Shown here piece by piece: positions 22,110 to 38,141 of a stretch of DNA of 64,000 nt (position 1 is the first letter of the stretch; each line of letters starts with the position of its first letter). Origin of the DNA: a virus. The position numbers and the translations under genes are program-made. The stretch lies in IMG/VR virus record IMGVR_UViG_3300031576_000018, positions 26,840-90,839 of that record, one strand, 5' to 3'. The notes beneath the pieces are model-generated. The model did no database searches, was not told the origin of the DNA, and was given only the letters and a program-made list of their open reading frames with translations.

Positions 22110-22140
22110 ATTAACTCAACTATTTTCTTGACACCTATTA

Positions 22141-22183
22141 ACCCATTTATTTTGTTTACAATTTAGTCTTTTTATGGTATAAT
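22141..22183 (+). promoter_or_regulatory. repeated early-type promoter A
   Basis: TTTACA at 22155-22160 and TATAAT at 22178-22183 with a 17-bp spacer; TGG before the -10 makes an extended -10. The upstream bases CATTTATTTTG are shared with four other copies at 23051, 28671, 48061 and 56068. A TTGACA at 22129 is not at a useful distance. It marks the switch from structural to early-type genes. Confidence 0.85.
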
Positions 22184-22216: not shown

Positions 22217-22246
22217 AAATAGTGTGGGAAATTTCCCACACTATTT
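22217..22246 (+). terminator. leader palindrome/terminator-like hairpin A
   Basis: A perfect 30-base palindrome (arm AAATAGTGTGGGAAA) placed between promoter A and its first gene and followed by only a short T stretch (TTTTAG). It may act as an attenuator in the leader or as a protein-binding site. Confidence 0.55.
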
Positions 22247-22264: not shown

Positions 22265-22477
22265 ATGCACGCACATTTATTTCTTACAAAGGTCTTTTTA
22301 TGTGTTCAGGATTTTTATACAGTTAACTCAATTCTGCCTACTTTTGGGTTGTCTGCCCATTATGAAGCTACTCGAACACTAACCCCAGACGGGGATATGT
22401 ACGTAATTAAACTAAGTAATAAAAGCCACTGGTTTACTCCAGAGGAGTTTAAGGTCTACTTTCAGGAGGTCAAATGA
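22265..22477 (+). CDS. small early protein, unknown
   Basis: A 70-residue protein with a strong ribosome site (AGAGGAGAAAG) directly after the leader hairpin of promoter A. Soluble, with SHWFTPEEFKVYF near the end. No family recognised. It overlaps the next gene by four bases. Confidence 0.6.
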   Translation: MHAHLFLTKVFLCVQDFYTVNSILPTFGLSAHYEATRTLTPDGDMYVIKLSNKSHWFTPEEFKVYFQEVK

Positions 22478-22755
22478 AAACAATTTCTTCAGAAGAGTGG
22501 GAAGAATCTTATGGGATTCATCTAGACGAGTGGGGTAATCCAAAACCTTACGAAACGTACGGGGATGACCTGCAGGTTGTATTGGAGAATAGGAACAAAG
22601 TTTGGACAATGCTAGAAACTGATAATGAAGAATCAGACGAGAATGGTTATGTAGACAATACTTTAGTTGTTAGTGGCTATCATTGGGTAAATCGTATTCA
22701 TCATTTCATAGGTACAAAAGATGTTCCAGCAGAAGATATACAAGTAGATTGGTAG
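22474..22755 (+). CDS. small acidic early protein, unknown
   Basis: A 93-residue, strongly acidic protein (many Asp and Glu) with an AGGAGG ribosome site inside the upstream gene. Highly acidic small phage proteins sometimes mimic DNA or bind host proteins, but nothing specific is recognisable here. Confidence 0.55.
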   Translation: MKTISSEEWEESYGIHLDEWGNPKPYETYGDDLQVVLENRNKVWTMLETDNEESDENGYVDNTLVVSGYHWVNRIHHFIGTKDVPAEDIQVDW

Positions 22756-22764
22756 AAAAAGATT

Positions 22765-22998
22765 ATGGAAGAAGAATTTCAAAGTTTAACAATAAGACAA
22801 TTTGCAGAGCAAGAAGACGTTGATTTAGATGAAACAATCTATAGGCTATGTACGCACGACTTTTTACTGGCTTTGGATCAAATGGAATTTTCAGAAAAGT
22901 TAAATAAAAAGGTATTGGGTAAGTTTAGTCCCAATTTAATCTCAGGTAAATTGCAATTCAAGACTTCATTAGATACCGAATGGTTTAAAGCTGTTTAA
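22765..22998 (+). CDS. small early protein, unknown
   Basis: A 77-residue protein, last of the three-gene operon after promoter A. The stretch IRQFAEQEDVDLDETIYRLC suggests a helical, possibly HTH-like, N-terminal half. No family recognised. Confidence 0.5.
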   Translation: MEEEFQSLTIRQFAEQEDVDLDETIYRLCTHDFLLALDQMEFSEKLNKKVLGKFSPNLISGKLQFKTSLDTEWFKAV

Positions 22999-23035
22999 GT
23001 TGAAGAAATAACCTAAGTGGTTAACTCAGCTAATC

Positions 23036-23079
23036 TATTCATTTATTTTGTTTACAATTATAGGTTTATATGGTATAAT
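23036..23079 (+). promoter_or_regulatory. repeated early-type promoter B
   Basis: TTTACA at 23051-23056, TATAAT at 23074-23079, 17-bp spacer, TGG extended -10. The upstream stretch TTAACTCAGCTAATCTA (23021-23037) and CATTTATTTTG are nearly identical to promoter E at 56068, giving more than 40 matching bases upstream. Confidence 0.88.
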
Positions 23080-23138
23080 ATAGACTATCTTTAGGATATT
23101 TTCCTTTAGATTTTTAGGCAATTTTTATTTTACGTTAG

Positions 23139-23174
23139 TTAGGTGTAGGGAGTTTTCCCACACCTAATTTTTTT
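23139..23174 (+). terminator. leader terminator B before the first gene
   Basis: Stem TTAGGTGT(A)GGGA with TCCCACACCTAA, one bulged A and loop GTTT, followed by seven T. It is a good intrinsic terminator yet lies between promoter B and its first gene, 24 bases before the ATG, so downstream expression would need read-through or antitermination. Confidence 0.8.
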
Positions 23175-23197
23175 ACTTTAATGGGAGAAAAGATAAT

Positions 23198-23428
23198 ATG
23201 AAAAATAACTTAAAAGCTATTTTTGCTCTAGGGCAAATGTTACAACACATTTCAAGCAGCGATACGCATAGGGCTGTGACAGAAAACAAACCAGCTTCAC
23301 ACACTTTTTATCCAGACGGAGTTCCTTTTATGTCCGAATTGTTACCACAAAAAAGAAAGCGTAAAAAGAAAGATAAACTAAGTAGGTCTGAGAGAAAGAA
23401 AAAAAAGACAAGTGGTCAGCTCAAATGA
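23198..23428 (+). CDS. small basic early protein
   Basis: A 76-residue protein with ribosome site GGGAG. The last 30 residues are almost all Lys and Arg (KRKRKKKDKLSRSERKKKK), which suggests nucleic-acid binding. First gene after leader terminator B. No family recognised. It overlaps the next gene by four bases. Confidence 0.6.
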   Translation: MKNNLKAIFALGQMLQHISSSDTHRAVTENKPASHTFYPDGVPFMSELLPQKRKRKKKDKLSRSERKKKKTSGQLK

Positions 23429-23655
23429 ATGAATTTGACGCAGCGTTAGATAACTTGGCAAAGACTGGAGATGTAACATATCTTCAGGAGTGTAGAGAAT
23501 GGCTTGCTAAAAAACAAAATAGCCTGGGGTGTAACCACGATGACTTAGAAGAGTTGGATAAACTTGTTAAGATGATTCGTTTTCTAGACGGAACAATTAA
23601 AGTATTTACGAACTTTTCTAATATGGGAAGAGCTGAATGTGGAAATCCAAGATAA
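23425..23655 (+). CDS. small helical protein, unknown
   Basis: A 76-residue helical protein coupled to the preceding gene (ATGA). No motif recognised. Confidence 0.5.
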   Translation: MNEFDAALDNLAKTGDVTYLQECREWLAKKQNSLGCNHDDLEELDKLVKMIRFLDGTIKVFTNFSNMGRAECGNPR

Positions 23656-23929
23656 CGACTTATATATCGCTATGACGAGAACGGAGATAAGTTCACATCT
23701 TGTCAAACTATCAGATGAGCTTAGTAAGCTAATATCGGAATTTGTTCTCCTTAAGGATGACCTAGAGGACGTTCTCCAACTAAACAAGACAAATCCGTTT
23801 AGTTTAATCGGTCAGAAAGTAGGTCATAATCTACAGCAAATAGACAATATGTTTAATACAGTTAAACGAGATATCAACCATCTTGGGGATAGACACCGGA
23901 GATGGTGGGAGGAAATAGAAAGTGTTTAA
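23639..23929 (+). CDS. small coiled-coil protein, unknown
   Basis: A 96-residue protein starting with GTG inside the preceding gene. It is helical with heptad-like leucines (SSHLVKLSDELSKLISEFVLL) and two basic patches near the end. It overlaps the helicase gene by eight bases, so the two are probably co-translated. Confidence 0.5.
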   Translation: MEIQDNDLYIAMTRTEISSHLVKLSDELSKLISEFVLLKDDLEDVLQLNKTNPFSLIGQKVGHNLQQIDNMFNTVKRDINHLGDRHRRWWEEIESV

Positions 23930-25811
23930 TGAACAACAGTTAGCAGCGATACAACACCGAGAAGGGCCTGCCATTGTTTTAGCTGCAGCAGGGTCTGGTA
24001 AGAGTACATTGATTGTAGGAAGAATAAAAGAGCTTATAGAGAGTGGAGTAAAGCCTGGGCGTATTCTCACCATTACCTTCTCCAAAGCCAGTGTAGAAGA
24101 CCTCAAGAAGAAGTGTGACAAGCTGAACTTAACGGGTGTGGAAATAAGAAGTTTCCACTCTCTGGGCTTTTGGATTGTTCGTACAGAGGTCGAACACTTA
24201 AGACTACTTCCACTATCTTTGCATTACAAGAAGGGAGTAAAAGTATTTACTGAAAATTCCCAAGGTTTCTTTATGCGAAAGTTTATCAAAGATAACGACT
24301 ACAAGGTAGACTTTGGTTCTGCCTTGGGTGTGATTGGAATGTTTAAACGGAATCTGATAACTGTAGAAGAAGTAGGAAGATACTTGGCGGAGCACTATTG
24401 GGAAAATGCCCCGATGTGGCTACACATTTACGAAGCCTACGAAGCATTTAAGCGTGAACAAAATTCCATTGATTTTGATGACATGATTTTCATAGCCGTT
24501 AAACTATTGGGGATTGAGGGGATTCGTAAAAAGTGGCAAACCTTCTTTGACTATATGATGGTGGATGAAGCACAAGATAACTCGTTAATGCAGTTTCAAC
24601 TCCCACAGGCTTTAGCAGGAGAAGAGAATAACATTATGATTGTAGGAGATGACTTCCAGGCTATCTATTCTTTTAACGGGAGTCGAGTAGAACAGTTTTT
24701 AAATTTTCCTAATCTTTCTCCTAAGACACAGGTTTACTTGTTGGAGAAGAACTACCGTTCTGGAGAACCTATTTTGGAGTTGGGCAACAAGTTAGTCCGA
24801 TACATGGATAACCCCTTTCAAAAGCAAGTGCAAGCTACCAGAAATGGACAGGGTGCGTCCATAAACTATCAGCAGTACATTGACTCAGAGGAAGAGGGTT
24901 TGGGGATTGTAGAACAAATTATGATGAGTAGCGAGGATACTCCGTATGAAGACATGTTGTGTCTTTACAGAACCCATGCCCAATCCAGGGCAATAGAAGA
25001 TGCCCTTATCCGTTCTAGAATACCTTATGTGATCGTTGGGGGAATATCCTTTTATCAGAGAAAAGAGGTAAAAGACGTTCTTTCTATGTTGATGATAGCC
25101 TACGACTCTAGAAAGTACGAAGATCATATAGCCAGAGTAGTTAATATTTCTTCAAATGATTTCCCTTATCCTACAAGAAGACTGGGAAAAGAATTTATAG
25201 CTGAAATGAAGGCTTACGCTAAAAAAGAAGGTGTGTCTTACGCAGAGGCGTTAAGTGGAATGAGACTAACTGATTTCCAACGTAAAGGGGTCAGAGATTT
25301 CTCCGCTTTCTTAGGTATGCTTCGCAAAGAAGAAACATTAGCCAAACAGATAGAAGTATTCTTAGATAAGGGATACCTGCGTTATGTTCGTAACGAGTTG
25401 GGTCTACAGGATGACGAAAGCTGTGACCGAATAGAGATGATTAACGAGCTAAAATACTTTGTCTCTCTCTACCCAGACCCAGAAGAATTGTTCAGCTATG
25501 TTGAGCAAATATGGGATGGTTCTCAATCTAAGGATGAGGGAGTACGACTGATGACTTTGCATAAGTCCAAAGGATTAGAAGCCCATACCGTGTTTTTACC
25601 TGGGTTAAATCAGGGAATCTTACCTCACAAGAACGCAGGAAGACTGCAAAAAGGGGAACCTTCTGGTTCTCTTGAAGAAGAGAGAAGATTGTGTTACGTT
25701 GGAGTAACCAGAGCAACGCATAAACTTTATATCAGCCGGTTTCGTTGTAAAGAGGAGAAAGTATTCGCGCCTTCCTACTTTCTTAAAGAAATGGGCTTAA
25801 TAGAATATTAA
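23922..25811 (+). CDS. UvrD/Rep/PcrA-type SF1A DNA helicase
   Basis: A 629-residue ATP-dependent 3'-5' DNA helicase by family. Motifs in order: Walker A AAAGSGKST (21-29); DEAQDNS (motif II); GDDFQAIYSFNGS (III); LEKNYRSG (IV); LMTLHKSKGLEAHTVFLPGL (V); EERRLCYVGVTRATH (VI). It is slightly shorter than host UvrD (about 720). GTG start after GGGAGG. Likely roles are replication-fork restart or recombination in support of the phage replisome. It ends the operon and is followed by a terminator. Confidence 0.93.
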   Translation: MFNEQQLAAIQHREGPAIVLAAAGSGKSTLIVGRIKELIESGVKPGRILTITFSKASVEDLKKKCDKLNLTGVEIRSFHSLGFWIVRTEVEHLRLLPLSLHYKKGVKVFTENSQGFFMRKFIKDNDYKVDFGSALGVIGMFKRNLITVEEVGRYLAEHYWENAPMWLHIYEAYEAFKREQNSIDFDDMIFIAVKLLGIEGIRKKWQTFFDYMMVDEAQDNSLMQFQLPQALAGEENNIMIVGDDFQAIYSFNGSRVEQFLNFPNLSPKTQVYLLEKNYRSGEPILELGNKLVRYMDNPFQKQVQATRNGQGASINYQQYIDSEEEGLGIVEQIMMSSEDTPYEDMLCLYRTHAQSRAIEDALIRSRIPYVIVGGISFYQRKEVKDVLSMLMIAYDSRKYEDHIARVVNISSNDFPYPTRRLGKEFIAEMKAYAKKEGVSYAEALSGMRLTDFQRKGVRDFSAFLGMLRKEETLAKQIEVFLDKGYLRYVRNELGLQDDESCDRIEMINELKYFVSLYPDPEELFSYVEQIWDGSQSKDEGVRLMTLHKSKGLEAHTVFLPGLNQGILPHKNAGRLQKGEPSGSLEEERRLCYVGVTRATHKLYISRFRCKEEKVFAPSYFLKEMGLIEY

Positions 25812-25855
25812 CTCACTCCATGAGCAGACTTTGCTTTCTCCCATTAAACAAGCAC

Positions 25856-25886
25856 AGATGGGGGTTACTCCCCCTCTATTTTTTTT
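25856..25886 (+). terminator. intrinsic terminator after the helicase
   Basis: Stem AGA(T)GGGGG with CCCCCTCT, loop TTACT, one bulged T, then a run of eight T. It ends 7 bases before the next ATG, so that gene either lies on read-through mRNA or has its own start signal. Confidence 0.85.
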
Positions 25887-25893
25887 ATAAACT

Positions 25894-27153
25894 ATGAGAA
25901 GACAACTAAAACTATATAGCTTTCATCCCCACATAATTTATGAACCTGTAGAAACCTTAATCGAGATTCTATCGGTTAATGGGTATGGGGTTAGAAAGAA
26001 TACCCAGAGTGTAAAGGTCAGAGACTTTGTAATTTCTTGGAAACCTGCTTTAAGCGTAGAGATGATTCAAACACAATTCCCCTACACCATCTACTACCCC
26101 TCTGGAGCTGTAGGAGAGGCCACAGAAACAGATATTTGCCAGTTGGTAGAGGAAATACAAGGAGTAGACTATAGTGTTAAACGTAAAGTCTCAGAAGGCA
26201 TTATCCAACATAACCAGGTAGAAGAGTTATTAAATGATACCAAAATGGTACTACTCCCAAAATGTGAAAACCTAAGAGTCTATATTAGCCGTAGAAAGAA
26301 AGTAAAATTTTATCAGGCCGGTAAACATGAAGTGCAATACTGTGACACAGCTATTACAATGGAGCCTGTTTCTGGGAGTGTAGACATTATCGATTGCTTT
26401 CCAGAGTTGAAAGAGGCACTAAGTAAACTGGACAACGATTTAAACTTTATTGTAGAAGGCTGGTTGTATCATCCTAATTACAATCCAAAGGCATTCCTAA
26501 AAACAATCGTTCAGAGAGAGGAAGGAGTCTTTTCTCGTAGAGGTCAGGATTCACCTAAGCTAGTTTTAAGTGACATTCACCTCTACGGAGTAGAAGATTA
26601 CTCTCAATTGAAGTTTAAAGCTAGGAGAGCTATCCTAGAGCATTTCTACAGCCTTCTCGATACAAAGTCAGTCTGGTTGGGAAAAGTTTTATATGAAAAG
26701 GATAAGAAGGATTACTTCAGTAGACACCTAGGTAAGGCATTTAAGTTTGTGTTTGTCGACACCAGAAGGACGCTAGCAGACCAACATATCTTACCTATCT
26801 TTAAATCCTATTGCCACTTCCATGCTGTAGTCTGTGAGGTCAAGTTTGGAGATAAGCCGTTGGCCCAGTCCATTACTTTTGGATTTTACGTGGAGAATAT
26901 GGACACAGTTATCGCGTATATGGAGTTGAAGCTGGATAATTTTTCTGGTATTGATAAACACAAACTCTTAATTAAAACAAATGCCTCCTTCTGGAAGAAC
27001 AGAGTTGTAAAATTAAGAGGCTATGTCACACCACAGTTTGAATTTATAAATATTAAAGTACTGAAGTATTGGGGGATTGAGTATATCAATGACTACAGAG
27101 TCTGTACAATCGAAAGATTTAAGAGAGAATCCGTGGAAGAACGAAGAGGTTAA
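25894..27153 (+). CDS. possible divergent ligase/nucleotidyltransferase-fold protein
   Basis: A 419-residue protein with no certain family. I see a pattern like the ATP-dependent ligase superfamily. LPKCENLRVYISRR (122-134) resembles motif I KxDGxR with Lys123, Glu125 and Arg128. FIVEGWLYH (186-194) resembles motif III. LVLSDIHLYG followed by KFKARRAIL (223-248) resembles motif IIIa and the RR element. A C-terminal NRVVKLRGYV...INIKVLKYWG stretch could be the OB domain. Motifs IV and V are not clear, and the usual D and G of motif I are E and N. It could be a divergent nucleic acid ligase, an inactive relative, or chance similarity. Confidence 0.4.
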   Translation: MRRQLKLYSFHPHIIYEPVETLIEILSVNGYGVRKNTQSVKVRDFVISWKPALSVEMIQTQFPYTIYYPSGAVGEATETDICQLVEEIQGVDYSVKRKVSEGIIQHNQVEELLNDTKMVLLPKCENLRVYISRRKKVKFYQAGKHEVQYCDTAITMEPVSGSVDIIDCFPELKEALSKLDNDLNFIVEGWLYHPNYNPKAFLKTIVQREEGVFSRRGQDSPKLVLSDIHLYGVEDYSQLKFKARRAILEHFYSLLDTKSVWLGKVLYEKDKKDYFSRHLGKAFKFVFVDTRRTLADQHILPIFKSYCHFHAVVCEVKFGDKPLAQSITFGFYVENMDTVIAYMELKLDNFSGIDKHKLLIKTNASFWKNRVVKLRGYVTPQFEFINIKVLKYWGIEYINDYRVCTIERFKRESVEERRG

Positions 27154-27478
27154 GACAGAACTCCAGTTTAAAATGTGGCTACAGAACTTTGAGCTTCAGG
27201 CTATCGCAGACGAACTAATTGAGGGGGTGTACAGGGGAAAATGGTGTACCTATATTGCAACAGACTCTAAAATTTACAGATTTAGACCTGTAAGAGGATT
27301 TGAAGGGCCAAAGGTTCGTTGGCGTATCGAAGTCTTTGTAAAACAACTAACTTTTGAAGTTAACGAAGAGCTTTCACAAGTACGAACAGTTGAGAAGGAT
27401 AAACTCATTGCCAATTTTCAAGTCTACGGAAAACACCAAGGATTAAAAACAGCTATAGAGGAGATATTCAAATGTTAA
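27089..27478 (+). CDS. unknown protein
   Basis: A 129-residue soluble protein. I prefer ATG 27089, which overlaps the end of the ligase-like gene; an in-frame TTG at 27077 is possible. WCTYIATDSKIYRFRPV suggests beta strands. No motif recognised. Confidence 0.5.
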   Translation: MTTESVQSKDLRENPWKNEEVKTELQFKMWLQNFELQAIADELIEGVYRGKWCTYIATDSKIYRFRPVRGFEGPKVRWRIEVFVKQLTFEVNEELSQVRTVEKDKLIANFQVYGKHQGLKTAIEEIFKC

Positions 27479-27699
27479 CTTTAGTTGATACAAAAGGGAA
27501 CATGGTTAATTTAGACATTAATATGGTAGAAAGCTTTTTAATTGATAAAGAGAAAACTAAGTTTTCATTACGGGTGTGGCGAATGGACGAACCCACGCTT
27601 ATGAGGTTGCCAACAGACTTTATCATAACAAAGACAGAAGCTAAGATATTCTGTGAAATGTGGGTTCAGTCTCACTTAGTTAGAATAGGGGCTAAATAA
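27472..27699 (+). CDS. small unknown protein
   Basis: A 75-residue protein overlapping the preceding stop by seven bases. Alternating beta strands at the start (LTLVDTKGNMVNLDI). No family recognised. Confidence 0.5.
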   Translation: MLTLVDTKGNMVNLDINMVESFLIDKEKTKFSLRVWRMDEPTLMRLPTDFIITKTEAKIFCEMWVQSHLVRIGAK

Positions 27700-27885
27700 A
27701 TGAGGGAGTATCAATTAAACGCGGTTGTTGAAAACTTTGACCAAATTACCGAGTACATTATCCAAGAACTTGTTCCTGTTGTAGTTCTAGAAGAGCAGGT
27801 TAAAAGAATGATCATCTTACCTTGGGAAGATTACTTTACGATAAAATGTAGGCTACTAAAGGTTGAGTTGAAGGAAAATACTTAA
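27700..27885 (+). CDS. small unknown protein
   Basis: A 61-residue protein starting directly after the previous stop. No motif recognised; held as a gene because it is packed without gaps between neighbours. Confidence 0.5.
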   Translation: MREYQLNAVVENFDQITEYIIQELVPVVVLEEQVKRMIILPWEDYFTIKCRLLKVELKENT

Positions 27886-28257
27886 GTGGATAAAATGGAA
27901 CTGCTTAAGCAAGCACAACAGAAAGTAGAGAGAAAGAAGAAAACCCTTTCTAAAAAATCAGCCAAGAAGCAAATATTGAGTTATTTCAGAATGAGGTATA
28001 AAGAACAATACCAAGAAACCTATGTTCCCAGTGCAAATGTACAGTTTACTCTGGAGCACATCTTAGGTTTATTTGATGAAGACTTAACGCTCTTAAAACA
28101 ATCCATTGACTGGTTAATGAAACACTATGAGGAAATGCCAAATATTAATCTAGATGTATTCCCTAGACCGTCTATTGTTGTTTTACATAGGTGGGGAAGC
28201 TATATCTCACAACAGCTAAATAAGCCAGAAATTGATCCAAGATTTGGAATACTATAG
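27886..28257 (+). CDS. unknown basic helical protein
   Basis: A 123-residue protein starting with GTG right after the previous stop; ATG 27895 is an alternative. The N-terminus is strongly basic (QKVERKKKTLSKKSAKKQ), suggesting nucleic acid or protein docking. No family recognised. Confidence 0.5.
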   Translation: MDKMELLKQAQQKVERKKKTLSKKSAKKQILSYFRMRYKEQYQETYVPSANVQFTLEHILGLFDEDLTLLKQSIDWLMKHYEEMPNINLDVFPRPSIVVLHRWGSYISQQLNKPEIDPRFGIL

Positions 28258-28266
28258 GAGGTTGGT

Positions 28267-28644
28267 ATGAAGAAACAGAAAGTGATAAGAATAGAAAAAC
28301 CAGAAAATTTAATGTCCGGTTTAATATCTGCGTCACAACGCATTAAACGAGTAAGACATTACTTTTATGCGTGTAAAGTCTGAGAACGTTTTGCCTTTCT
28401 CTCTGCCCAAGAAGATATTGAAAAAGAGGTTGTGGGTGAGTTGGTTTCTTTGGGGTTTAAAGAGATAGATACGTGCGGATTAGTAGAAGACAAGTATTAC
28501 CTTATTGTAGACTTTGAGAAAATGAAATTTATGTTTGTTGAAGAAATTTATGAACTAGATGATTTTTCCACGCCTGGTTTTTATCTAGAACAGTTGATAT
28601 TTAACGAGCACACAACAAATTGGGCAAATAACTCAGAAGATTAA
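28267..28644 (+). pseudogene. gene interrupted by an in-frame TGA at 28381
   Basis: An AGGAGG ribosome site precedes ATG 28267, which opens a 38-codon frame ending in TGA at 28381-28383. The same frame then stays open for a further 87 codons to 28644 with gene-like composition (EDIEKEVVGELVSLGFKEID, then YYLIVDFEKMKFMFVEEI). Two separate genes in exactly the same frame with nothing between would be unusual, so one 125-codon gene with a nonsense change (for example CGA to TGA) or stop read-through is likelier. The alternative is a 38-residue peptide plus a GTG-started 70-residue protein at 28432. Function unknown. Confidence 0.5.
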
Positions 28645-28659
28645 GACAGGTAATTAACT

Positions 28660-28699
28660 CGTTTATTTTGTTTACAATTATACCTTTTTATGGTATAAT
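28660..28699 (+). promoter_or_regulatory. repeated early-type promoter C
   Basis: TTTACA at 28671-28676, TATAAT at 28694-28699, 17-bp spacer and extended -10 TGG. CGTTTATTTTG and ATTATACCTTTTTATGG match promoter E. The leader (28700-28753) has no terminator hairpin, unlike copies B and E. Confidence 0.88.
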
Positions 28700-28753: not shown

Positions 28754-28996
28754 ATGATGACAACAATTCCGTTTACAGTTTCTATACTGGCAAAACCATT
28801 AAAGGAGATAATCACACAACTTAACTTTGTGAAAGCGCACAAAGCAGTTATCCCAGAGCTAGAGAATGTTGTTTTGGAGAAAGACGATAAAGGTTGTCTA
28901 CAACTTTGTGGAACAGACTTAGAAGTTTACATGACAGTTTCTACTAAAATTCGTGTAGCCGGTGACTTTAAACCAGGAGATAAAAAATATTTGTAA
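28754..28996 (+). CDS. stand-alone fragment of DnaN sliding-clamp domain 1
   Basis: An 80-residue protein whose sequence follows the first domain of bacterial beta sliding clamps: FTV...LAKPLKEII at the start, IPELENVVLE in the middle, and LQLCGTDLEVYMTV, the DnaN hallmark GTDLE motif. A normal clamp is about 370 residues in three domains; this ends before domain 1 is complete. It is well expressed by design, being the first gene after promoter C with a GGGAG ribosome site. It might bind the host clamp loader or clamp, or be a decoy. The similarity is clear; the role is inference. Confidence 0.6.
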   Translation: MMTTIPFTVSILAKPLKEIITQLNFVKAHKAVIPELENVVLEKDDKGCLQLCGTDLEVYMTVSTKIRVAGDFKPGDKKYL

Positions 28997-29274
28997 TGAA
29001 AGTACAAGACTTAATTAGGATGCTCCACGAAGAATACTTACTTTTAAAGAAGCGGAAGTATAAGATTGAAAACACACCTCAAGTCTCTGTATACGAAGTT
29101 TGCGGCCAAGACGAAAAGAATATTCTGATCAGCCTAATTAACTTGTCTTCGGATGACTTAGACCGAATTTTCCATATTGACCTACCTTGTGTTGAAGATT
29201 TTGTATGGGAATTTCAAGAAAGAGATAAACTAACTATTCATCAATTACCGCACAAACAACGTAAACTAGAGTAA
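28996..29274 (+). CDS. small unknown protein
   Basis: A 92-residue protein whose ATG overlaps the stop of the clamp-like gene (TAATG), so the two are coupled. Acidic and helical. No family recognised; perhaps a partner of the clamp fragment. Confidence 0.5.
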   Translation: MKVQDLIRMLHEEYLLLKKRKYKIENTPQVSVYEVCGQDEKNILISLINLSSDDLDRIFHIDLPCVEDFVWEFQERDKLTIHQLPHKQRKLE

Positions 29275-29299
29275 TTAAATTTTAAAAGAGGACTTACTT

Positions 29300-29590
29300 A
29301 TGTTTACACAACTTGCGCTGATTACACTTACAACCGTTTCTTTTTACGCAGATAAATTTGAAGGAAAGCGAACAGCTTCTGGAGAAATCTTTCACCAGGA
29401 GTCTTATTATGCTGCCCATAGAACACTTCCCTTTGGAACCTGGGTACAGTTGAATCATAAAGGGAGGATTGTATTTGTTCAGGTAGTAGACCGTTGTAAT
29501 TGTAAAGGGATTGATATTTCTAAACGTGCTTTTCGAGCCTTGGGCTTACTAGAACAAGGTGTTTTGAAAGATGTTCAATTAACTTATTAA
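29300..29590 (+). CDS. RlpA-like double-psi beta-barrel protein
   Basis: A 96-residue protein matching the RlpA double-psi barrel: SFYADKFEGKRTASGEIF, YYAAHRTLPFGTWVQL, VVDRCNCKGIDISKRAF, then LG and the GV...V strand. RlpA proteins bind or cleave peptidoglycan glycan strands lacking stem peptides. The RTASGE and DR-x(5)-D-S residues are kept. The first 14 residues (MFTQLALITLTTVS) could be a short export signal without a basic start. It sits among early genes, away from the lysis block. Confidence 0.75.
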   Translation: MFTQLALITLTTVSFYADKFEGKRTASGEIFHQESYYAAHRTLPFGTWVQLNHKGRIVFVQVVDRCNCKGIDISKRAFRALGLLEQGVLKDVQLTY

Positions 29591-29603
29591 AAGGAAAAAG
29601 ATT

Positions 29604-29957
29604 ATGCAAATAGATTTAAAAGAAAATAGCGTCATTATTGACGGAATTGAGTATGAAAAGAAACAGCCGCCTCTATCTGATTTTTGTATTATACGCACCT
29701 ATTCAGCGGGTGTGTTCGCAGGGTATGTAAAAGAAAAACGAGGACACGAACTAGATTTAACAGACGTAATTCGACTTCACTACTGGGGAGGGGCTTGCAG
29801 CCTAAGTCAGTTGTCTCAAGAAGGAGTAAAGGAGCCGAACGTGTGCAGATTCTCGGTGGTTGTTCCTTTTCAAACAGTTAACGGCTGGATTGAAATTATA
29901 CCTTGCACCGCTGCCGCAGAAAAAAATATTAAGGGAGTAAAGACGTGGAAAAGTTGA
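29604..29957 (+). CDS. conserved phage protein of DUF6948 type
   Basis: A 117-residue protein with the recurring pattern IIRTYSAGVFAGYV, LTDVIRLHYWGGACSLSQLS and IEIIPCTAAAEKNIKGV..W, which I recall from the small phage family called DUF6948. Its function is unknown. Its last 13 bases overlap the start of the Gly-X repeat gene. Confidence 0.6.
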   Translation: MQIDLKENSVIIDGIEYEKKQPPLSDFCIIRTYSAGVFAGYVKEKRGHELDLTDVIRLHYWGGACSLSQLSQEGVKEPNVCRFSVVVPFQTVNGWIEIIPCTAAAEKNIKGVKTWKS

Positions 29958-30199
29958 CGAATCCTTTTTTCAATCATACTTACACAGGCGATGGCTGTGG
30001 CAGTGGCAGTGGCGATGGCAGTGGCGATGGCAGTGGCTATTATGGCAGTGGCGATGGCTGTGGCTGTGGCAGTGGCTGTGGCAGTGGCTGTGGCAGTGGC
30101 GATGGCAGTGGCGATGGCAGTGGCTATGGCAGTGGCTATGGCGATGGCTATGGCAGTGGCGATGGCGATGGCTATGGCAGTGGCTGTGGCTATGGTTAA
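29945..30199 (+). CDS. Gly-X repeat protein (X = Ser, Asp, Cys, Tyr)
   Basis: An 84-residue protein: 14 ordinary residues followed by about 70 residues that are strictly Gly alternating with Asp, Ser, Cys or Tyr. GTG 29945 is preceded by GGGAG at seven bases, so this frame rather than the Ala-Val frame is the likely one. Every second codon is GGC and the others are AGT, GAT, TGT or TAT, making a GC-rich island in an AT-rich genome. Such a chain would be flexible, could bind metal through Asp or Cys, or form fibrous material. The DNA repeat is prone to slippage. Confidence 0.55.
   Translation: MEKLTNPFFNHTYTGDGCGSGSGDGSGDGSGYYGSGDGCGCGSGCGSGCGSGDGSGDGSGYGSGYGDGYGSGDGDGYGSGCGYG
29985..30195 (+). 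repeat. hexamer-type GGCNNT tandem repeat
   Basis: About 35 near-copies of the unit GGCNNT, NN being GA, AG, TG or TA. It is much richer in G and C than its surroundings. Copy number would change the length of the encoded Gly-X protein in steps of two residues without shifting the frame. Confidence 0.9.
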
Positions 30200-30215
30200 A
30201 AAAAGGAATTTGTCA

Positions 30216-30225
30216 CCCCCCCCCC
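30216..30225 (+). repeat. poly-C tract of ten
   Basis: Ten consecutive C in otherwise AT-rich DNA, just after the stop of the Gly-X gene and about 40 bases before the next ribosome site. Homopolymer tracts of this length are slippage hot spots. Confidence 0.9.
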
Positions 30226-30268
30226 TGTTAGCCAAGGAACAAAGCATATTTAGGTAAAGGAGAAATTA

Positions 30269-30601
30269 ATGGGAGTTGTACAAGCAAGTAAAGTAGATGT
30301 GACTAAAGAATTAATAGGGAAGATGGAGAAGCACGTTAAACGTGTTTTGGAAAACTTCGCCTCTGACTTCTATGACCACGATGTGAAAGAAATAGAGGAG
30401 TATGCTAAGGAGGCCGAACCGCCTAAACTTTTGTGGAGTATTAGGGAATCTGGAACCTGGTTAATTCCGCTTATACCAGAGCAGGAAGAGAGGATAGAAC
30501 AGATTAAAGAGCAATATAAAGACCACAGGGTAATTGAGTATTTCATAGTCGATGTGAAAAAAGGAACACTTAAAAAGATTTATTTTTACAATTCACAATA
30601 G
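30269..30601 (+). CDS. unknown protein
   Basis: A 110-residue soluble helical protein with ribosome site AAAGGAG. Mixed charges and one Trp-rich patch (KLLWSIRESGTWLIPLIP). No family recognised. Confidence 0.55.
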   Translation: MGVVQASKVDVTKELIGKMEKHVKRVLENFASDFYDHDVKEIEEYAKEAEPPKLLWSIRESGTWLIPLIPEQEERIEQIKEQYKDHRVIEYFIVDVKKGTLKKIYFYNSQ

Positions 30602-30612
30602 GGAGGTTTACC

Positions 30613-31137
30613 ATGATCGTCAATTTAAGAGACTTTTTAAGCACCTATGTACAAGAGGCAGTAGGGGAGTGGCTAGAAGTACAGGATATCCCGCAAAGTA
30701 AGCATGAACTCTTTTATAGCGTGCTTAGAAAGAAAATTCAGGAAAGGGTTGAAGGATTTCTTCACCGTAACGCGATTATAGCTACGGCAATTGAAATAGC
30801 CAGACATGACGAGTTTAAACCAGATAAATTAAAGCTAGTGTGGCAAAATTCTCAAATAGGCGAAATAGTCTTAGCGGGAAAGGTTATTGGGCAAGCAAGA
30901 ACATTCCCAATAAACGGTATGAGCACAAACATTTATATCTTGGATAAAATTTCAGACGCTTTAATTGTGGAGGTGGATAGTTTTTACTCAGGAAACGAAC
31001 CAGAGAAACCTGAGTTTGTTATTGTCCATCCCAACAAGGGTCAGTCTAAATACAGTTACAGTCTTATCTTCACTCAGTGGGAAGATGTACAAAAGGTCGT
31101 AGATGGATTTTTTAACGTAAAAGAGTGGGGTAAGTAG
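30613..31137 (+). CDS. unknown protein
   Basis: A 174-residue soluble alpha/beta protein with ribosome site GGGAGG. The N-terminal 60 residues are helical. No catalytic or binding motif recognised. It precedes the initiator-like genes. Confidence 0.55.
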   Translation: MIVNLRDFLSTYVQEAVGEWLEVQDIPQSKHELFYSVLRKKIQERVEGFLHRNAIIATAIEIARHDEFKPDKLKLVWQNSQIGEIVLAGKVIGQARTFPINGMSTNIYILDKISDALIVEVDSFYSGNEPEKPEFVIVHPNKGQSKYSYSLIFTQWEDVQKVVDGFFNVKEWGK

Positions 31138-31139
31138 AT

Positions 31140-31508
31140 ATGTCTAAAACCTACCCACTTCTTAAGCCTTTAAACAATGAAGTTGTTATTTTAGTTCCTC
31201 CTTTACTTGCCAAAGAAATTGGTGTGTTAGAAGCTATCTTTTTACAACAAGTTCATGAGTGGTTAGAAGCAATAGAGAAAGTTGACCCAGAGACAGAAGA
31301 AAACCCAGTTAATTATATTCGCAGACCTAAAAAAGTGTGGCTGAGCGAACTACCTTTTATAACTTTTTCAGAGTATGACCGAGTAATTGCAAGTCTACAC
31401 CCTAAAGGATTATTGACTTTTAAGAATGATTATGACCATTTAACTATGCGGATTGATTATGAGAAATTGGCTACCTACAAAGGTCATTTGGTGAGCACAG
31501 AGCGTTAG
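31140..31508 (+). CDS. winged-helix replication-initiator-like protein (short)
   Basis: A 122-residue protein with the start pattern of phage and plasmid primosomal winged-helix proteins: LVPPLLAKEIGVLEAIFLQQ, VHEWL, then WLSELPFITFSEYDRVIASL and LHPKGLLTF. It is clearly related to the larger protein at 31588 but lacks the C-terminal tail. It probably binds origin DNA or partners with that initiator. Confidence 0.65.
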   Translation: MSKTYPLLKPLNNEVVILVPPLLAKEIGVLEAIFLQQVHEWLEAIEKVDPETEENPVNYIRRPKKVWLSELPFITFSEYDRVIASLHPKGLLTFKNDYDHLTMRIDYEKLATYKGHLVSTER

Positions 31509-31514
31509 ATAAAA

Positions 31515-31558
31515 AAATAGCCCCACTGTTTTTCAATATGTTACAATGGGGAAATAAA
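31515..31558 (+). promoter_or_regulatory. inverted repeat and extended -10-like site
   Basis: CCCCACTGT and ACAATGGGG form a nine-base stem with one mismatch around a 13-base loop, ahead of the initiator gene at 31588. The 3' arm contains TGTTACAAT, which fits an extended -10. It may be an operator or initiator binding site. Confidence 0.3.
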
Positions 31559-31587
31559 TCTTTTTTGAATTGGAGATATTGTACCTC

Positions 31588-32436
31588 ATGTCTAAGACTT
31601 TAATCAATGAAGCCCCCTTATTAATTCCCCGCACTTTAGCTAAATACCTTGGTTTATTGGATGCTATTTTCCTACAACAAGTTCATTTCTGGGTAGAAAT
31701 TAACAAACAAGCAGGAAGAAATCTAAAAAAAGGTGATTATTGGATGTATCTCTCCTCAGAAGGCTGGATAGAAGAACTTCCCTTCTTGTGTGAAAAAACA
31801 ATAAAAAATATTATTGTTAGACTAAAGAAATTAAATTTGTTAATTGTTGACCATTTAGATAAGAATCATTTTAATCGCACAAATTGGTTTCGTGTTAACT
31901 ATGAAGAGCTAGAAAGATTAGAAGTTTCTTGGTTAGAAGAGAAAGAAGAGAAAGCCAGATTAAAATTTTTTGCACTCGCTGTTAAAGAAGTGGAAGAAGA
32001 ATTAGAAGAGTCAATGGGTTCTAAAATACCAGATAGATTGGGTAAATTTACCCAATGCATTAGTGAACCAAATACCCAATCAGAAAGGGTAACTGACGCA
32101 CAATCTAAACAGAGAGTAACAGAGATAACAAAAACAACTTCTTCCGAAGAAAAAGATTACCCAATGGATATAGAGGAAGAGGACAAAGAACTACGAGAAG
32201 ATTTTGAGTTAGTGTGGGGAGATTTTCCTAAGAAAGATTCTCATAAGGAAAAGCACTGGTTAAGATATAAACAGCTCAAACCAAAAATAAAACTAGTTAA
32301 ATTAGCTTTAGACCTTTTAGAAGAACAAACAAACGGACAAGTAAAATTCTATCCCAACTTTGATAACTTTCTTACTTCTTTTGTAGCTAAGAAAACCAGT
32401 TCTGATGACTACGACCCTAAAACAGGGATTCTTTAG
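31588..32436 (+). CDS. winged-helix replication initiator (DnaD/RepO-like)
   Basis: A 282-residue protein; ATG 31588 is preferred over TTG 31570 because families of this type begin with LINExPLLxxPxLA. The N-terminal 110 residues contain LGLLDAIFLQQVHFW, GWIEELPFLCEKTIKNIIVRLKKLNLLI and FRVNYEEL, the winged-helix module of replisome organisers. An acidic linker follows, and a C-terminal segment (DFELVWGDFPKKDS, then FDNFLTSFV) resembles the primosome-partner region. It is followed by a zinc protein and the helicase loader, as expected for an origin-binding initiator. Confidence 0.7.
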   Translation: MSKTLINEAPLLIPRTLAKYLGLLDAIFLQQVHFWVEINKQAGRNLKKGDYWMYLSSEGWIEELPFLCEKTIKNIIVRLKKLNLLIVDHLDKNHFNRTNWFRVNYEELERLEVSWLEEKEEKARLKFFALAVKEVEEELEESMGSKIPDRLGKFTQCISEPNTQSERVTDAQSKQRVTEITKTTSSEEKDYPMDIEEEDKELREDFELVWGDFPKKDSHKEKHWLRYKQLKPKIKLVKLALDLLEEQTNGQVKFYPNFDNFLTSFVAKKTSSDDYDPKTGIL

Positions 32437-32438
32437 TT

Positions 32439-32684
32439 ATGCCAAATATATTACCGTTTCCTACAGGGGATAGTCTTGAGGGTGTAAGCACTAAAGCACC
32501 TACTGGTGTTAACGTAGACGTGGTTTGTGCGAATTGTAGAGGTGTATTCGTTACAAGTGTTAGCGAAGAAGAGCTGCTCAGAGGCGCATTAAAGGTTCAT
32601 TTGCCTTTTCCTGCTGCGTGTCCTAATTGTGGTGTTATGCGTAAAAAATTTAGACTGCTTGAGGATGATTGGATAGATGAGTGA
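32439..32684 (+). CDS. small zinc-ribbon protein
   Basis: An 81-residue protein with two CxxC knuckles (VVCANCRG and AACPNCGV) about 30 residues apart, a classic zinc ribbon. It lies between the initiator and the DnaC-like loader and overlaps the latter by eight bases, so a replisome role is likely. Confidence 0.65.
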   Translation: MPNILPFPTGDSLEGVSTKAPTGVNVDVVCANCRGVFVTSVSEEELLRGALKVHLPFPAACPNCGVMRKKFRLLEDDWIDE

Positions 32685-33213
32685 TGAGATATTAGGTCGA
32701 TATGGAATAGGAAAATCCTATAGAGGTTTACAGCTTCAACACAGTAAATCTGCTTTTGTTGCTTCAGAAGTTTCAAGTTACTTAGAAAGACTTAAAACCC
32801 ATGTTCAAGAAGGAACGGGTTTACTTTTCCAAGGTGCTGGGAATACAGGTAAATCAGCTTTGGCTTCTATAATTTGCCGAGAGGCAATTCTAAAGCATTA
32901 CTATCCTGCTTATTTTATGTCTTTAGATGATCTTCTTCTTTTAGACAACGCTCGTTGGAAGATGAAACAGTACCAAGAAGAGTATTCCAAGAAGGTAGAG
33001 AAGCCTAAGATTTTAGTTTTAGATGACGTACCTTTTGTTTCTAACAAAGCGAAAAGTCCAGAAGAATTAATAAAACAGGTTCTTGCTAAGAGGCTTAGAG
33101 AGAATAATGTAACCATTTTTACAACTAAAAGCCTGAAAAATATTAAAGAGCCTATTCCAGAATTGATGTTGAGAAAGAACAAAATTATAGAGTGTACGGT
33201 GGAATATGTTTGA
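32677..33213 (+). CDS. DnaC/IstB-like AAA+ helicase loader
   Basis: A 178-residue ATPase. Walker A GAGNTGKS (53-60) and Walker B ILVLDDVP (112-119), followed by sensor-1-like TIFTTKS. Size and motif order match phage DnaC/DnaI-type loaders, which place the replicative helicase on DNA. The DnaB-like gene follows three genes later. Confidence 0.8.
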   Translation: MSDEILGRYGIGKSYRGLQLQHSKSAFVASEVSSYLERLKTHVQEGTGLLFQGAGNTGKSALASIICREAILKHYYPAYFMSLDDLLLLDNARWKMKQYQEEYSKKVEKPKILVLDDVPFVSNKAKSPEELIKQVLAKRLRENNVTIFTTKSLKNIKEPIPELMLRKNKIIECTVEYV

Positions 33214-33661
33214 AGGGAACATTTCTAATCAGCCCGCGGCTACTATAGGCTGGTATTATGATGTACTTCTGATTATTAAGTATCCAAAATTATTTCGATG
33301 GGCTAAAAAAAGTATGCCTTCTATACTTAAGTTTCTTTATCAACGTAACGAATTGGCGATAGCCCAAATGGAATTGTATTTCAAAGACTACAATGTCAAA
33401 GTAGTCGTAGACCATCCAAACCTGAAAAAGATATTTGATGACGAATATAACACAGTAGCGGTAGGACACATCTCACAGCTTAGCCAGTTGCCTTATTTTA
33501 GGGTTTTTACGACAGATAAGCGTTTTATAGGTCTAAGTGGAATTGTACGTTATATTATGCCTTTTAAGCAGTTTATAAAAGAAGACAAACAACTTAAAGA
33601 TAATGTAGCTGGTTTTGCAGAAATGATGATTGAGCTTGGAGAAAGGTTGAAGAAAGAATGA
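33206..33661 (+). CDS. unknown protein
   Basis: A 151-residue protein overlapping the loader gene by eight bases. Helical N-terminal half with aromatic residues. No motif recognised; context suggests an accessory replication protein. Confidence 0.5.
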   Translation: MFEGNISNQPAATIGWYYDVLLIIKYPKLFRWAKKSMPSILKFLYQRNELAIAQMELYFKDYNVKVVVDHPNLKKIFDDEYNTVAVGHISQLSQLPYFRVFTTDKRFIGLSGIVRYIMPFKQFIKEDKQLKDNVAGFAEMMIELGERLKKE

Positions 33662-33918
33662 GCTACACCAAAAGAGAAGTACAGAAAGACACATTAGCAA
33701 TTCTAAAAAGCATTAAAGGTTACGAGCTAGTGCAAATTGTTCCTGCCTGTTTTTCAGACCCAGAAAAGGAACAAATGTTTCAGTTTGTTCCATTTAACAA
33801 GATTGAAGACAATGTAATAACCATTTATACCCGCTTTTGTAATGATGAGGTGGTGGAGCAAATAAAAAGAATCCATAAAGAGTTTTATTCGTATTTGTAT
33901 TTGGGACAAAAAGAATGA
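33658..33918 (+). CDS. small unknown protein
   Basis: An 86-residue protein with four-base overlaps at both ends. No family recognised. Confidence 0.5.
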   Translation: MSYTKREVQKDTLAILKSIKGYELVQIVPACFSDPEKEQMFQFVPFNKIEDNVITIYTRFCNDEVVEQIKRIHKEFYSYLYLGQKE

Positions 33919-34349
33919 CAGAACATAGAAAGTATAAGCGAATTAAAGAGAACAGAGGTAGAAGTCAAATACTTCGCAGCACTACGTTAAGTATTTCTAG
34001 GTTGTATGGGAAGGGGCTAAGTGTAAAAAGCATATCAAAAAAGTTAGGTATTTCTACAACCACCATATACACGTATATAAAAAGTTTAGGCGTAAAAAAG
34101 GAAAGTTTACTATCGCCACAGCAGCTAGTTTTAAGAAAATGTGTAGCGTCTCTGCTATGTATTAAAATGCCGCCAGCGGCATTGAAAAAAATTCTTAAAT
34201 TGAAACAAACTAAAAAAGTCATTAGAGCTTGGGAGAACCAGTATGGCTATTCCGAGGATTATTTTAACAAGGGTTTAACTTTAATTAAGTATAAGGTACT
34301 ACAAAATCCTCCAAAGAAAAAGGGTAGCAAACGGGTTAAAGAGAGGTGA
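33915..34349 (+). CDS. helix-turn-helix DNA-binding protein
   Basis: A 144-residue, very basic protein. Residues 27-59 (SISRLYGKGLSVKSISKKLGISTTTIYTYIKSLGV) contain a resolvase/Sigma-type HTH in which LGISTTTIYTYIK is the recognition part. Basic tail at the C-terminus. It lies between loader and helicase genes and may bind the origin or regulate the module. Confidence 0.65.
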   Translation: MTEHRKYKRIKENRGRSQILRSTTLSISRLYGKGLSVKSISKKLGISTTTIYTYIKSLGVKKESLLSPQQLVLRKCVASLLCIKMPPAALKKILKLKQTKKVIRAWENQYGYSEDYFNKGLTLIKYKVLQNPPKKKGSKRVKER

Positions 34350-35557
34350 GTCTTGACAGAAAATTTATAACAACCCTGATTACTGAGGATGAAGCTCTTC
34401 GTAAAGCCATAGACGCTAATATTCAGGATAACTGGATATTAAAAGAACTTAGACCTGCTTATCAGTGGATTAAATCTTTCTACACAGACTTTGGTAAAAT
34501 ACCCTCAAGGGAATCTCTCATTAAACGCTTTGGTGATATCCTCACCCTATCCGAAGAGAATGTAGCTTTCTATATTTCAGAGATTAGAAACCGTCAGAAG
34601 TTTAGTGTTATGGTCATGACTGCTGAACAAGTTTCTAACCTATTAATGGATGATAAGCAACCCGATAAGACCAAAGCCTTAGAAGAAGCCGAGAAGTTAT
34701 TTAATTCTGCTCATAAGCAACTCTATACAGAACTGAATACCTCTAAGGTAGTTAACATTGCTAAAAAGGCTACAGACAGGTATGACCAGTATCTTCATAG
34801 AAAATCCAATAAAATCACAGGGGTTATAACCCCATGGGAACCATTAACCGAAGAAACAATGGGTTGGCAACCAGGAGAGTTTGCCCTTTTTGTAGGACGT
34901 AGAGGTTTAGGAAAGACCTTAACACTTCTTCTTAATCTCTCCAAAGCCTACCAAGCTGGGTATAAACCATTACTCTTTACCCACGAAATGGGTGTAAAAC
35001 CAATCAGTTTAAGACTAGATGCTATTTTAGGGCAATTTGATTACGAAGCCTTGAGAAAAGGTAAGCTAGACCTCTCTGAGGAAAGAGCCTACTTAGAATA
35101 TCTTAAACGTATGGAAGAATCAGAGATGGTTTTGGAGGTAGCCGAAGGTGCAGGAAGAAAAGGAGTAGAAACTATTTATGCGTATTGCAGGACATTAAAA
35201 CCAGATATTGTCTTTGTAGATTCTGCGTACCTCTTCGCTAAATCGTATGACTGGAAAGACCAGTATGCTTTTTCAGCAGACTTAAGAGCAATGGCTGAAT
35301 CTTTAAAGATACCTATTATTATCTCTTTACAGGAGAAAAAAGACGGTGTAGCCATAGCGAAAGCCTATGAGAATGATGCGACGTGTATGTTCAGGCAGTA
35401 TAAGGATAAAGACATGGAAGAATTACCGTTTATGTGTTTTGAGACTCGGAAAATTAGAGAAGGAGAACCCATTCGTTGGGTATCCCATTGGGATTTTAAG
35501 TCTATGAACTTTACTTGGAACCCCCAAGTAGACCCACAGGAATATATAGATATATAA
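34346..35557 (+). CDS. dnaB: DnaB-like replicative helicase
   Basis: A 403-residue helicase with a short N-terminal domain and a RecA-like C-terminal domain. GWQPGEFALFVGRRGLGKT (173-191) gives the Walker A, LLFTHEMGVKP is the DnaB H1a-type motif, and PDIVFVDSAYL is Walker B. It should unwind DNA ahead of the fork as a hexamer with the primase and DnaC-like loader encoded nearby. GTG start overlapping the HTH gene. Confidence 0.85.
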   Translation: MSLDRKFITTLITEDEALRKAIDANIQDNWILKELRPAYQWIKSFYTDFGKIPSRESLIKRFGDILTLSEENVAFYISEIRNRQKFSVMVMTAEQVSNLLMDDKQPDKTKALEEAEKLFNSAHKQLYTELNTSKVVNIAKKATDRYDQYLHRKSNKITGVITPWEPLTEETMGWQPGEFALFVGRRGLGKTLTLLLNLSKAYQAGYKPLLFTHEMGVKPISLRLDAILGQFDYEALRKGKLDLSEERAYLEYLKRMEESEMVLEVAEGAGRKGVETIYAYCRTLKPDIVFVDSAYLFAKSYDWKDQYAFSADLRAMAESLKIPIIISLQEKKDGVAIAKAYENDATCMFRQYKDKDMEELPFMCFETRKIREGEPIRWVSHWDFKSMNFTWNPQVDPQEYIDI

Positions 35558-35558
35558 A

Positions 35559-37818: not shown

Positions 37819-38141
37819 AAAAAAGAATTAAAGAAATGATTAAATTGCTGAAGTCTTTTGACAAGGCAATTTTAATGAAAGAAAGGCACAATGTTTTAGA
37901 AGAAGACGAAGCGGAAGCCAGAATAGCGGTTGAGGAATCTCCGTTCGAGAGGACAGAGATTGTTTGTACCAAGGGTAATAACTTTCAATTGTTTTTCTAC
38001 GAGTTAAACAAAATGGCAGATGGCTACGATTTGGTGAAAGATATTCCCCACATTCTGACAGAAGATAAGCTAATGGACAAGTTGGTCAGTGATTTAAAAG
38101 AAGAAAAGAAAATCTCTTTAGAGCTCTATTTTAACTCTTGA
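37815..38141 (+). CDS. unknown small protein
   Basis: A 108-residue helical protein from ATG 37815 with a strong AGGAGAGAGG site; an earlier in-frame start at 37785 lacks one. Basic N-terminus and acidic middle. No family recognised. The -35 of the next promoter overlaps its stop codon. Confidence 0.55.
   Translation: MKKRIKEMIKLLKSFDKAILMKERHNVLEEDEAEARIAVEESPFERTEIVCTKGNNFQLFFYELNKMADGYDLVKDIPHILTEDKLMDKLVSDLKEEKKISLELYFNS

What the first reader, a model, noticed from the sequence alone, without database searches (positions are those of the whole stretch)
23012..23197. Five near-identical extended promoters define a phage regulon
TTTACA-17-TATAAT with TGG before the -10 and CRTTTATTTTG before the -35 occurs at 22155, 23051, 28671, 48061 and 56068, each ahead of an operon. 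Copies B and E share more than 40 upstream bases, far more than sigma70 needs, so the extra bases may bind a regulator (TTAACTC repeat). They head early-type operons and one large single-gene operon.
Basis: partly seen in the sequence, partly recalled or inferred. Interest (0 to 1): 0.82.

Follow-up and report, generated by a model that had tools for sequence, protein, structure and literature searches.

The report
Five matched phage early-promoter cassettes
A previously unknown 90.7-kb bacterial virus starts five of its early gene clusters from near-identical strong promoters that also carry a shared upstream repeat array and, in three cases, a 'stop' hairpin just after the start, which suggests these gene clusters are switched as a set.

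Summary
TTTACA-N14-TGGTATAAT occurs exactly five times in the circular ~90.7-kb phage genome. All copies are on the + strand, all lie in intergenic gaps, and no near-misses exist (PWM scores 54-70 bits, next best 2.5). They are the only near-consensus sigma70-type promoters in + strand intergenic DNA, and none lies in the ~42-kb structural half.

The core resembles T4-type early promoters (UP-like tract/-35/TGn/-10); T4 and unrelated IMG/VR phages carry the same class, so it is a known kind.

Two features go beyond that core:
(1) An upstream direct-repeat array of TTAACTC-like heptamers, 13-bp period (3-4 units in B, C, D, E; irregular in A), in fixed phase to the -35, as expected for a regulator site.
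(2) Leaders B and E carry a 5' hairpin of shared architecture, then the genome's two strongest + strand intrinsic-terminator-like sites. Leader A has a similar hairpin; copy C lacks both.

In T4, RB49 and 37 IMG/VR promoters, terminators sit upstream of the promoter or are absent, never in the leader (0/83, versus 3/5 here).

Best reading: a dispersed early-promoter cassette, probably read by a phage regulator and gated by conditional termination. Binding and readthrough are inferred; host unknown; no close relatives found.

The parts
22111..22144 (+). Copy A upstream motif: TTAACTC and TTAACCC 27 bp apart (irregular version of the repeat array)
   Evidence: 13-bp period not significant in A
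22144..22183 (+). Promoter A: CATTTATTTTG + TTTACA-17-TATAAT with TGG
22217..22246 (+). Leader A hairpin, -18.5 kcal/mol folded alone, with a weak U-tail (terminator-like)
22265..22998 (+). Operon A: three small ORFs (70, 93, 77 aa), no family match
23008..23040 (+). Copy B repeat array ATAACCTaagtggTTAACTCagctaaTCTATTC (13-bp period)
23040..23079 (+). Promoter B: CATTTATTTTG + TTTACA-17-TATAAT with TGG
23087..23111 (+). Leader B 5' hairpin at the predicted +1: stem, UU/UU 2x2 loop, stem, 5-nt loop; -7.8 kcal/mol, z -3.1
23137..23175 (+). Leader B intrinsic-terminator-like hairpin (-17.2 kcal/mol) with T-rich tail, before the first gene
23198..28644 (+). Operon B: small ORFs, UvrD-type helicase (23922-25811), further ORFs
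25856..25884 (+). Internal terminator-like site after the helicase gene; no near-consensus promoter before the next gene
28628..28660 (+). Copy C repeat array ATAACTCagaagaTTAAGACaggtaaTTAACTC; its distal unit overlaps the end of the upstream ORF
28660..28699 (+). Promoter C: CGTTTATTTTG + TTTACA-17-TATAAT with TGG; leader without 5' hairpin or terminator
28754..48021 (+). Operon C: clamp-like ORF, helicase loaders, DnaB-like helicase, primase, DNA polymerase A, UvsX-like recombinase, RuvC, Tgt-like protein
48005..48050 (+). Copy D repeat array, four units: GTAACTCaggcgaTTAGCTGagctttTTAGCGTagagaaTTAAGTC
48050..48089 (+). Promoter D: CATTTATTTTG + TTTACA-17-TATAAT with TGG (divergent spacer)
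48095..48121 (+). Leader D 5' hairpin, -8.2 kcal/mol, z -2.3; no terminator
48156..49298 (+). Copy D gene P0001, 380 aa, no family match
49314..49342 (+). Terminator-like site directly after the copy D gene (-12.5 kcal/mol, T-rich tail)
55101..55802 (+). P0002, 233 aa, C-terminal Cro/C1-type HTH plus putative N-terminal HTH: candidate (unproven) regulator encoded just upstream of promoter E
56025..56057 (+). Copy E repeat array TTAAGCCagaagaTTAACTCagctaaTCTACTC
56057..56096 (+). Promoter E: CGTTTATTTTG + TTTACA-17-TATAAT with TGG
56103..56135 (+). Leader E 5' hairpin with the same architecture as B and a different inner stem; -9.2 kcal/mol, z -2.6
56155..56195 (+). Leader E intrinsic-terminator-like hairpin (-19.7 kcal/mol, 15 pairs) with T-rich tail: strongest + strand such site in the genome
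56214..59639 (+). Operon E: 80-aa ORF, 196-aa ORF, PAPS-reductase-like protein, small ORFs

Best explanation
These are five paralogous copies of one early-promoter cassette of a lytic-type phage, used by the host's housekeeping RNA polymerase immediately after infection. The core (T-rich UP-like tract, TTTACA, 17-bp spacer with TATGG, TATAAT) is the strong UP/-35/TGn/-10 type used by T4-like phages (supported by sequence and comparison; transcription not shown). Directly upstream, an array of 3-4 heptamers with a 13-bp period in fixed phase to the -35 is most likely the binding site of a DNA-binding protein, probably phage-encoded, that boosts or shuts off the five promoters together (inferred). 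In B and E, and more weakly in A, the transcript folds a terminator 55-90 nt after the start and before the first gene. These operons are therefore probably attenuated until RNA polymerase is made terminator-resistant, while C (replication operon) and D (a 380-aa gene of unknown function) are open at once (inferred). The 5' hairpin common to B and E and absent from C is the candidate cis-acting RNA for that readthrough (speculative).
For: Five perfect sites and nothing similar elsewhere, all intergenic and ahead of early/replication genes. Same core class in T4 (8 sites) and in three large IMG/VR phages (7-15 each), mostly on one strand, with almost no hits to the reversed control pattern. T4 early promoters are described as UP/-35/TGn/-10 promoters (PMC2988021). 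13-bp array: autocorrelation at lags 13 and 26 exceeds all 5,000 shuffles in C, D and E, and p = 0.008 in B. Three-unit arrays with at most 6 mismatches at period 13 occur in 4/5 upstream regions, against 0.05-0.15% of control regions. Leader terminators E and B are the two strongest + strand terminator-like sites of the genome and A is about fifth. Leader terminators occur at 3/5 sites here against 0/37 IMG/VR, 0/20 T4 and 0/26 RB49 promoter-like sites. B and E 5' hairpins share one architecture with different inner-stem sequences. Alignment shows C is the same cassette minus both hairpins.
Against: No RNA 5' ends, no binding data and no close relatives to show conservation. Consensus and period of the array were chosen after seeing it; B and E are related copies, so the effective number of independent arrays is about three, and A does not fit. 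The 5' hairpins are modest (z -2.3 to -3.1) and rest on two or three copies. Leader hairpins could instead stabilise mRNA, be RNase sites, or end transcripts arriving from the upstream operon. No candidate antiterminator protein was recognised.
Confidence: 0.6

Rival explanations
1. Plain strong sigma70-type early promoters that became similar by duplication. The upstream bases are an UP element plus inherited flanking sequence; nothing else binds, and co-regulation is simply early timing.
For: Core class is common in unrelated phages. B, C and E are alignable through promoter, leader and ribosome-binding site, so they look like duplicates. TTTATTTTG at about -45 to -36 suits alpha-CTD contacts.
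Against: Copy D has diverged in spacer and leader yet keeps the most regular four-unit 13-bp array in the same phase. Random drift would not be expected to keep phase and heptamers while losing the rest.
Confidence: 0.3
2. Leader hairpins terminate transcription coming from the upstream operon (a promoter-terminator composite as in T4-type PeSL elements). The promoter's own transcripts lose some efficiency but are not regulated there.
For: Operon A and the operon before E have no terminator-like site directly after their last gene, so the leader site is the first one met. PeSLs are known promoter-terminator composites of T4-like phages (title of Comeau et al. 2014 as cited in PMC4503421).
Against: In T4, RB49 and IMG/VR promoters of this class the terminator, when present, is upstream of the promoter and never downstream. 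Placing the two strongest + strand terminator-like sites after the promoter would choke the strongest promoters unless readthrough is arranged.
Confidence: 0.3
3. Leader hairpins are mRNA-stabilising or processing structures (5' stem-loops, RNase III-type sites) of early transcripts rather than terminators.
For: Leader A has a weak U-tail, D has only a 5' hairpin, and 5'-terminal stem-loops stabilise mRNAs in many bacteria (general knowledge).
Against: B and E have T tracts directly after a strong GC-containing stem, the full hallmark of intrinsic terminators.
Confidence: 0.2

Closest known systems
Bacteriophage T4 early promoters (UP/-35/TGn/-10 type; Hinton 2010, PMC2988021)
   Same: TTTAC(A/T)-N14/15-TGGTATAAT, A/T-rich UP-like tract, several near-identical copies ahead of early operons, on one strand.
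   Different: Phage unrelated to T4 (PolA-type polymerase, SPO1-like helicase); only five copies; 13-bp heptamer array upstream; leader terminators, which none of 20 T4 promoter-like sites has.
PeSL promoter-terminator cassettes of T4-like phages (Arbiol 2010; Comeau 2014; cited in PMC4503421)
   Same: Small repeated intergenic cassettes joining a strong early sigma70-like promoter and a stem-loop terminator, apparently duplicated within one genome.
   Different: Order is reversed: in RB49 and T4 sites tested here the terminator lies upstream of the promoter, whereas here it lies in the leader. The PeSL papers themselves are not held, so their own definition of the order was not checked.
HK022 put RNA, EAR and conAn processive antitermination (PMC9378689, PMC8955417)
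   Same: Hairpin RNA at the very start of the transcript followed by terminators that must be read through; terminator-like sites inside operons without an own promoter.
   Different: No sequence or Rfam match. put has two bulged stem-loops of about 70 nt, here one 25-33-nt hairpin. Antitermination is not shown.

Membership tests
T4-type early promoter (UP/-35/TGn/-10) | Near-consensus -35, 17-bp spacer, TGn and TATAAT together | tested here: met
   T4 comparison
T4-type early promoter (UP/-35/TGn/-10) | A/T-rich UP-like sequence directly upstream of the -35 | tested here: met
   Invariant CRTTTATTTTG in all five; alpha-CTD contact itself not tested
T4-type early promoter (UP/-35/TGn/-10) | Active at once after infection with unmodified host polymerase | not testable with these tools
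   Needs RNA from infected cells; host unknown
PeSL cassette | Strong early promoter joined to a stem-loop terminator in a repeated intergenic cassette | tested here: met
   Copies A, B, E; C and D lack a leader terminator
PeSL cassette | Terminator upstream of the promoter, ending the preceding unit (order observed here in RB49/T4) | tested here: not met
   0/46 leader terminators in T4/RB49 sites, 7 upstream; here 3/5 in the leader
put-type antiterminator RNA | Two adjacent bulged stem-loops of about 70 nt near the transcript start | tested here: not met
   One 25-33-nt hairpin in B and E; definition from PMC9378689
put-type antiterminator RNA | Confers readthrough of downstream terminators | not testable with these tools
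   Requires transcription assay

The most novel reading that the evidence does not exclude
The phage runs an early-gene switch in which a 13-bp-period direct-repeat array sets the activity of five matched promoters, and a promoter-proximal RNA hairpin makes RNA polymerase resist the strong leader terminators. This would be a promoter-linked processive antitermination system unrelated to N/nut, Q, put, EAR or conAn.
Probability: 0.2. Interest if true: 0.75.

Novelty: new variant of a known kind. Interest (0 to 1): 0.5.

Why it matters
If the reading is right, one small cassette explains how an orphan phage lineage times its early genes. Matched strong promoters capture the host polymerase, an upstream array gives common control, and terminators after three promoters delay those operons until readthrough is possible. 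It is directly testable on plasmids and would add a terminator-in-leader variant to the known early-promoter cassettes of phages. The promoter core alone would be ordinary.

Tried and rejected
Searches for related phages with the helicase, capsid protein, DnaB-like helicase, P0001 and P0002 gave no relative in IMG/VR; the DNA polymerase gave only about 22-33% identity hits; megablast against phages gave nothing. Best DNA polymerase hits among 'phage' records (Acinetobacter phage MD-2021a, a Salmonella contig) turned out to be bacterial chromosome contigs with bacterial polA, so they are not relatives. Host assignment failed: the genome-contig scans found no copy of the promoter and no helicase relative. 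Structure prediction of P0001 and P0002 from single sequences was uninformative (mean pLDDT 32 and 42). Leader-peptide attenuation rejected: no conserved leader ORF in B and E (read from sequence). Known riboswitch or RNA family rejected: nothing above Rfam gathering scores. 13-bp arrays as genome-wide iterons rejected: the strongest 13-bp arrays are at these promoters. A 13-bp array in copy A was tested and not supported.

Full report
OBSERVATION. The pattern TTTACA-N14-TGGTATAAT occurs at 22155, 23051, 28671, 48061 and 56068 without a mismatch; the remaining hits in the window have three mismatches and are at chance level. The window is bases 26840-90839 of a 90,839-bp virus contig, and the other 26.8 kb hold no further copy, even with one mismatch. 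The contig ends repeat 127 bp exactly, so it is most likely a closed circle of about 90.7 kb. A weight matrix of 48 positions separates the five (54.5-69.6 bits) from everything else on both strands (2.5 bits or less). All five lie in gaps between genes, and no other near-consensus (at most one hexamer mismatch) sigma70-type promoter lies in + strand intergenic DNA. CRTTTATTTTG before the -35 and TATGG before the -10 are invariant.

SETTING. Nearly all genes run on the + strand. The first half of the contig is structural (terminase, portal, major head protein, tail), and the second half holds helicase, primase, DnaB-like helicase, polymerase A, UvsX-like recombinase, RuvC and many small ORFs. 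All five promoters are in the second half. The phage has no near relative among 50,697 phage records (a 15-kb megablast, P0001) or in IMG/VR. Distant protein hits point to SPO1-like phages (helicase, 32%) and to Streptomyces phage BRock and Bacteroides phage BS162P1 (capsid and terminase, about 30%). The host is not known.

PROMOTER CORE. The same core is found in phage T4 (8 sites, one strand), in three large IMG/VR phages (7 to 15 sites each), and in 56 IMG/VR stretches when TTTGTTTACA-N12-TATGGTATAAT is scanned. The T4 review describes early promoters as having UP, -35, TGn and -10 elements together and outcompeting host promoters (PMC2988021). The core is therefore a known kind, most likely read by unmodified host polymerase at the start of infection. 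Near-identity of five copies fits duplication: B, C and E align from the upstream array through the promoter and an AGATTTTTAGGCAATTTTTA leader stretch to the ribosome-binding site.

UPSTREAM ARRAY. Ten bases before the -35 hexamer each copy has a TTAACTC-like heptamer, and further units follow at 13-bp steps: B ATAACCT-TTAACTC-TCTATTC, C ATAACTC-TTAAGAC-TTAACTC, E TTAAGCC-TTAACTC-TCTACTC, D GTAACTC-TTAGCTG-TTAGCGT-TTAAGTC. Matches at lags 13 and 26 exceed all 5,000 shuffles in C, D and E and reach p = 0.008 in B; A is irregular, with two heptamers 27 bp apart. When the period is left free (8-20 bp), single copies are only modestly unusual against genome windows (1.5% for C, 5.6% for E, 8.7% for D), so the case rests on the same period and phase recurring. 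Three units with at most six mismatches at period 13 are found in four of five regions, compared with 0.05% of random genome regions and 0.15% of shuffles. Across the genome the best 13-bp arrays are these. The consensus and the period were seen before they were tested, and B and E are related, so the independent support comes mainly from C, D and one of B/E. A direct-repeat array in fixed phase to the -35 is what a cooperatively binding regulator would need. A candidate is P0002 (55101-55802), with a Cro/C1-type HTH related to SinR and restriction-modification controller proteins. Its link to the array is a guess from proximity.

LEADERS. In B and E a 5' hairpin begins at the predicted start site. 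Both fold as stem, UU/UU 2x2 loop, stem and five-base loop, although the inner stems differ in sequence and length (z -3.1 and -2.6). It is followed by a terminator-like hairpin with a T tract before the first gene: E -19.7 and B -17.2 kcal/mol, the two strongest + strand sites of this kind in the whole genome; leader A has a third (-15.4) with a weaker tail. C is the same cassette without both hairpins, and D has a 5' hairpin only. In 37 IMG/VR promoters of the same class, 20 T4 and 26 RB49 promoter-like sites, a terminator, when present, is upstream of the promoter (13 cases) and never in the leader (0/83). The arrangement is thus unusual. Two further terminator-like sites, at 25856-25884 and 49314-49342, are followed by genes without a near-consensus promoter, which also calls for readthrough.

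MECHANISM. Shown from sequence: five unique matched promoters, the array, the leader structures and their unusual order. Inferred: early activity with host polymerase (likely), a common regulator on the array (about even odds), conditional termination in A, B and E with C and D open at once (somewhat less than even), and the 5' hairpin as antitermination element (speculative; it fails the two-stem definition of put, PMC9378689). Rivals are plain duplicated strong promoters, terminators that serve the upstream operon, and mRNA-stabilising hairpins.

VERDICT. The regulon idea is partly supported. The core is a known kind; the array and leader terminators make it a variant that merits a simple reporter experiment.

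Noticed in passing
window 61281-61490, - strand: In an otherwise ORF-poor stretch, a - strand promoter-like site (TTGACT-18-TATAAT at 61490) is followed about 180 nt on by the strongest hairpin/T-rich tail of the whole genome (-21 kcal/mol): a candidate small RNA without an Rfam match above threshold.
   Followed up: partly
window 59640-61354: A 1.7-kb gap without forward ORFs of 45 aa or more, unusual for a compact phage; possible origin, packaging or RNA region.
   Followed up: no
L083:2301-6176 (contig 2301-6176): Terminase large subunit ORF of 1,291 aa carries an intein with LAGLIDADG domain.
   Followed up: no
window 28754-28996: First gene of operon C is an 80-aa ORF matching only the N-terminal part of a sliding clamp; truncated or split clamp.
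   Followed up: no
window 29966-30207: Array of 12-bp repeats coding for Gly-Ser/Asp/Cys/Tyr units.
   Followed up: no
window 57079-57883: Two ORFs in the scanned set match the PAPS-reductase family phrog_424; overlapping ORFs 57079-57699 and 57587-57883 suggest a frameshift or sequence error (the second member was not identified directly).
   Followed up: no
L092, L095, L107, L113, L126, L139, L142: IMG/VR phages share a motif in which a hairpin ending in TGCATTTT or similar runs straight into the -35 (TTTTTTTGTTTACA): promoter and upstream terminator fused.
   Followed up: partly
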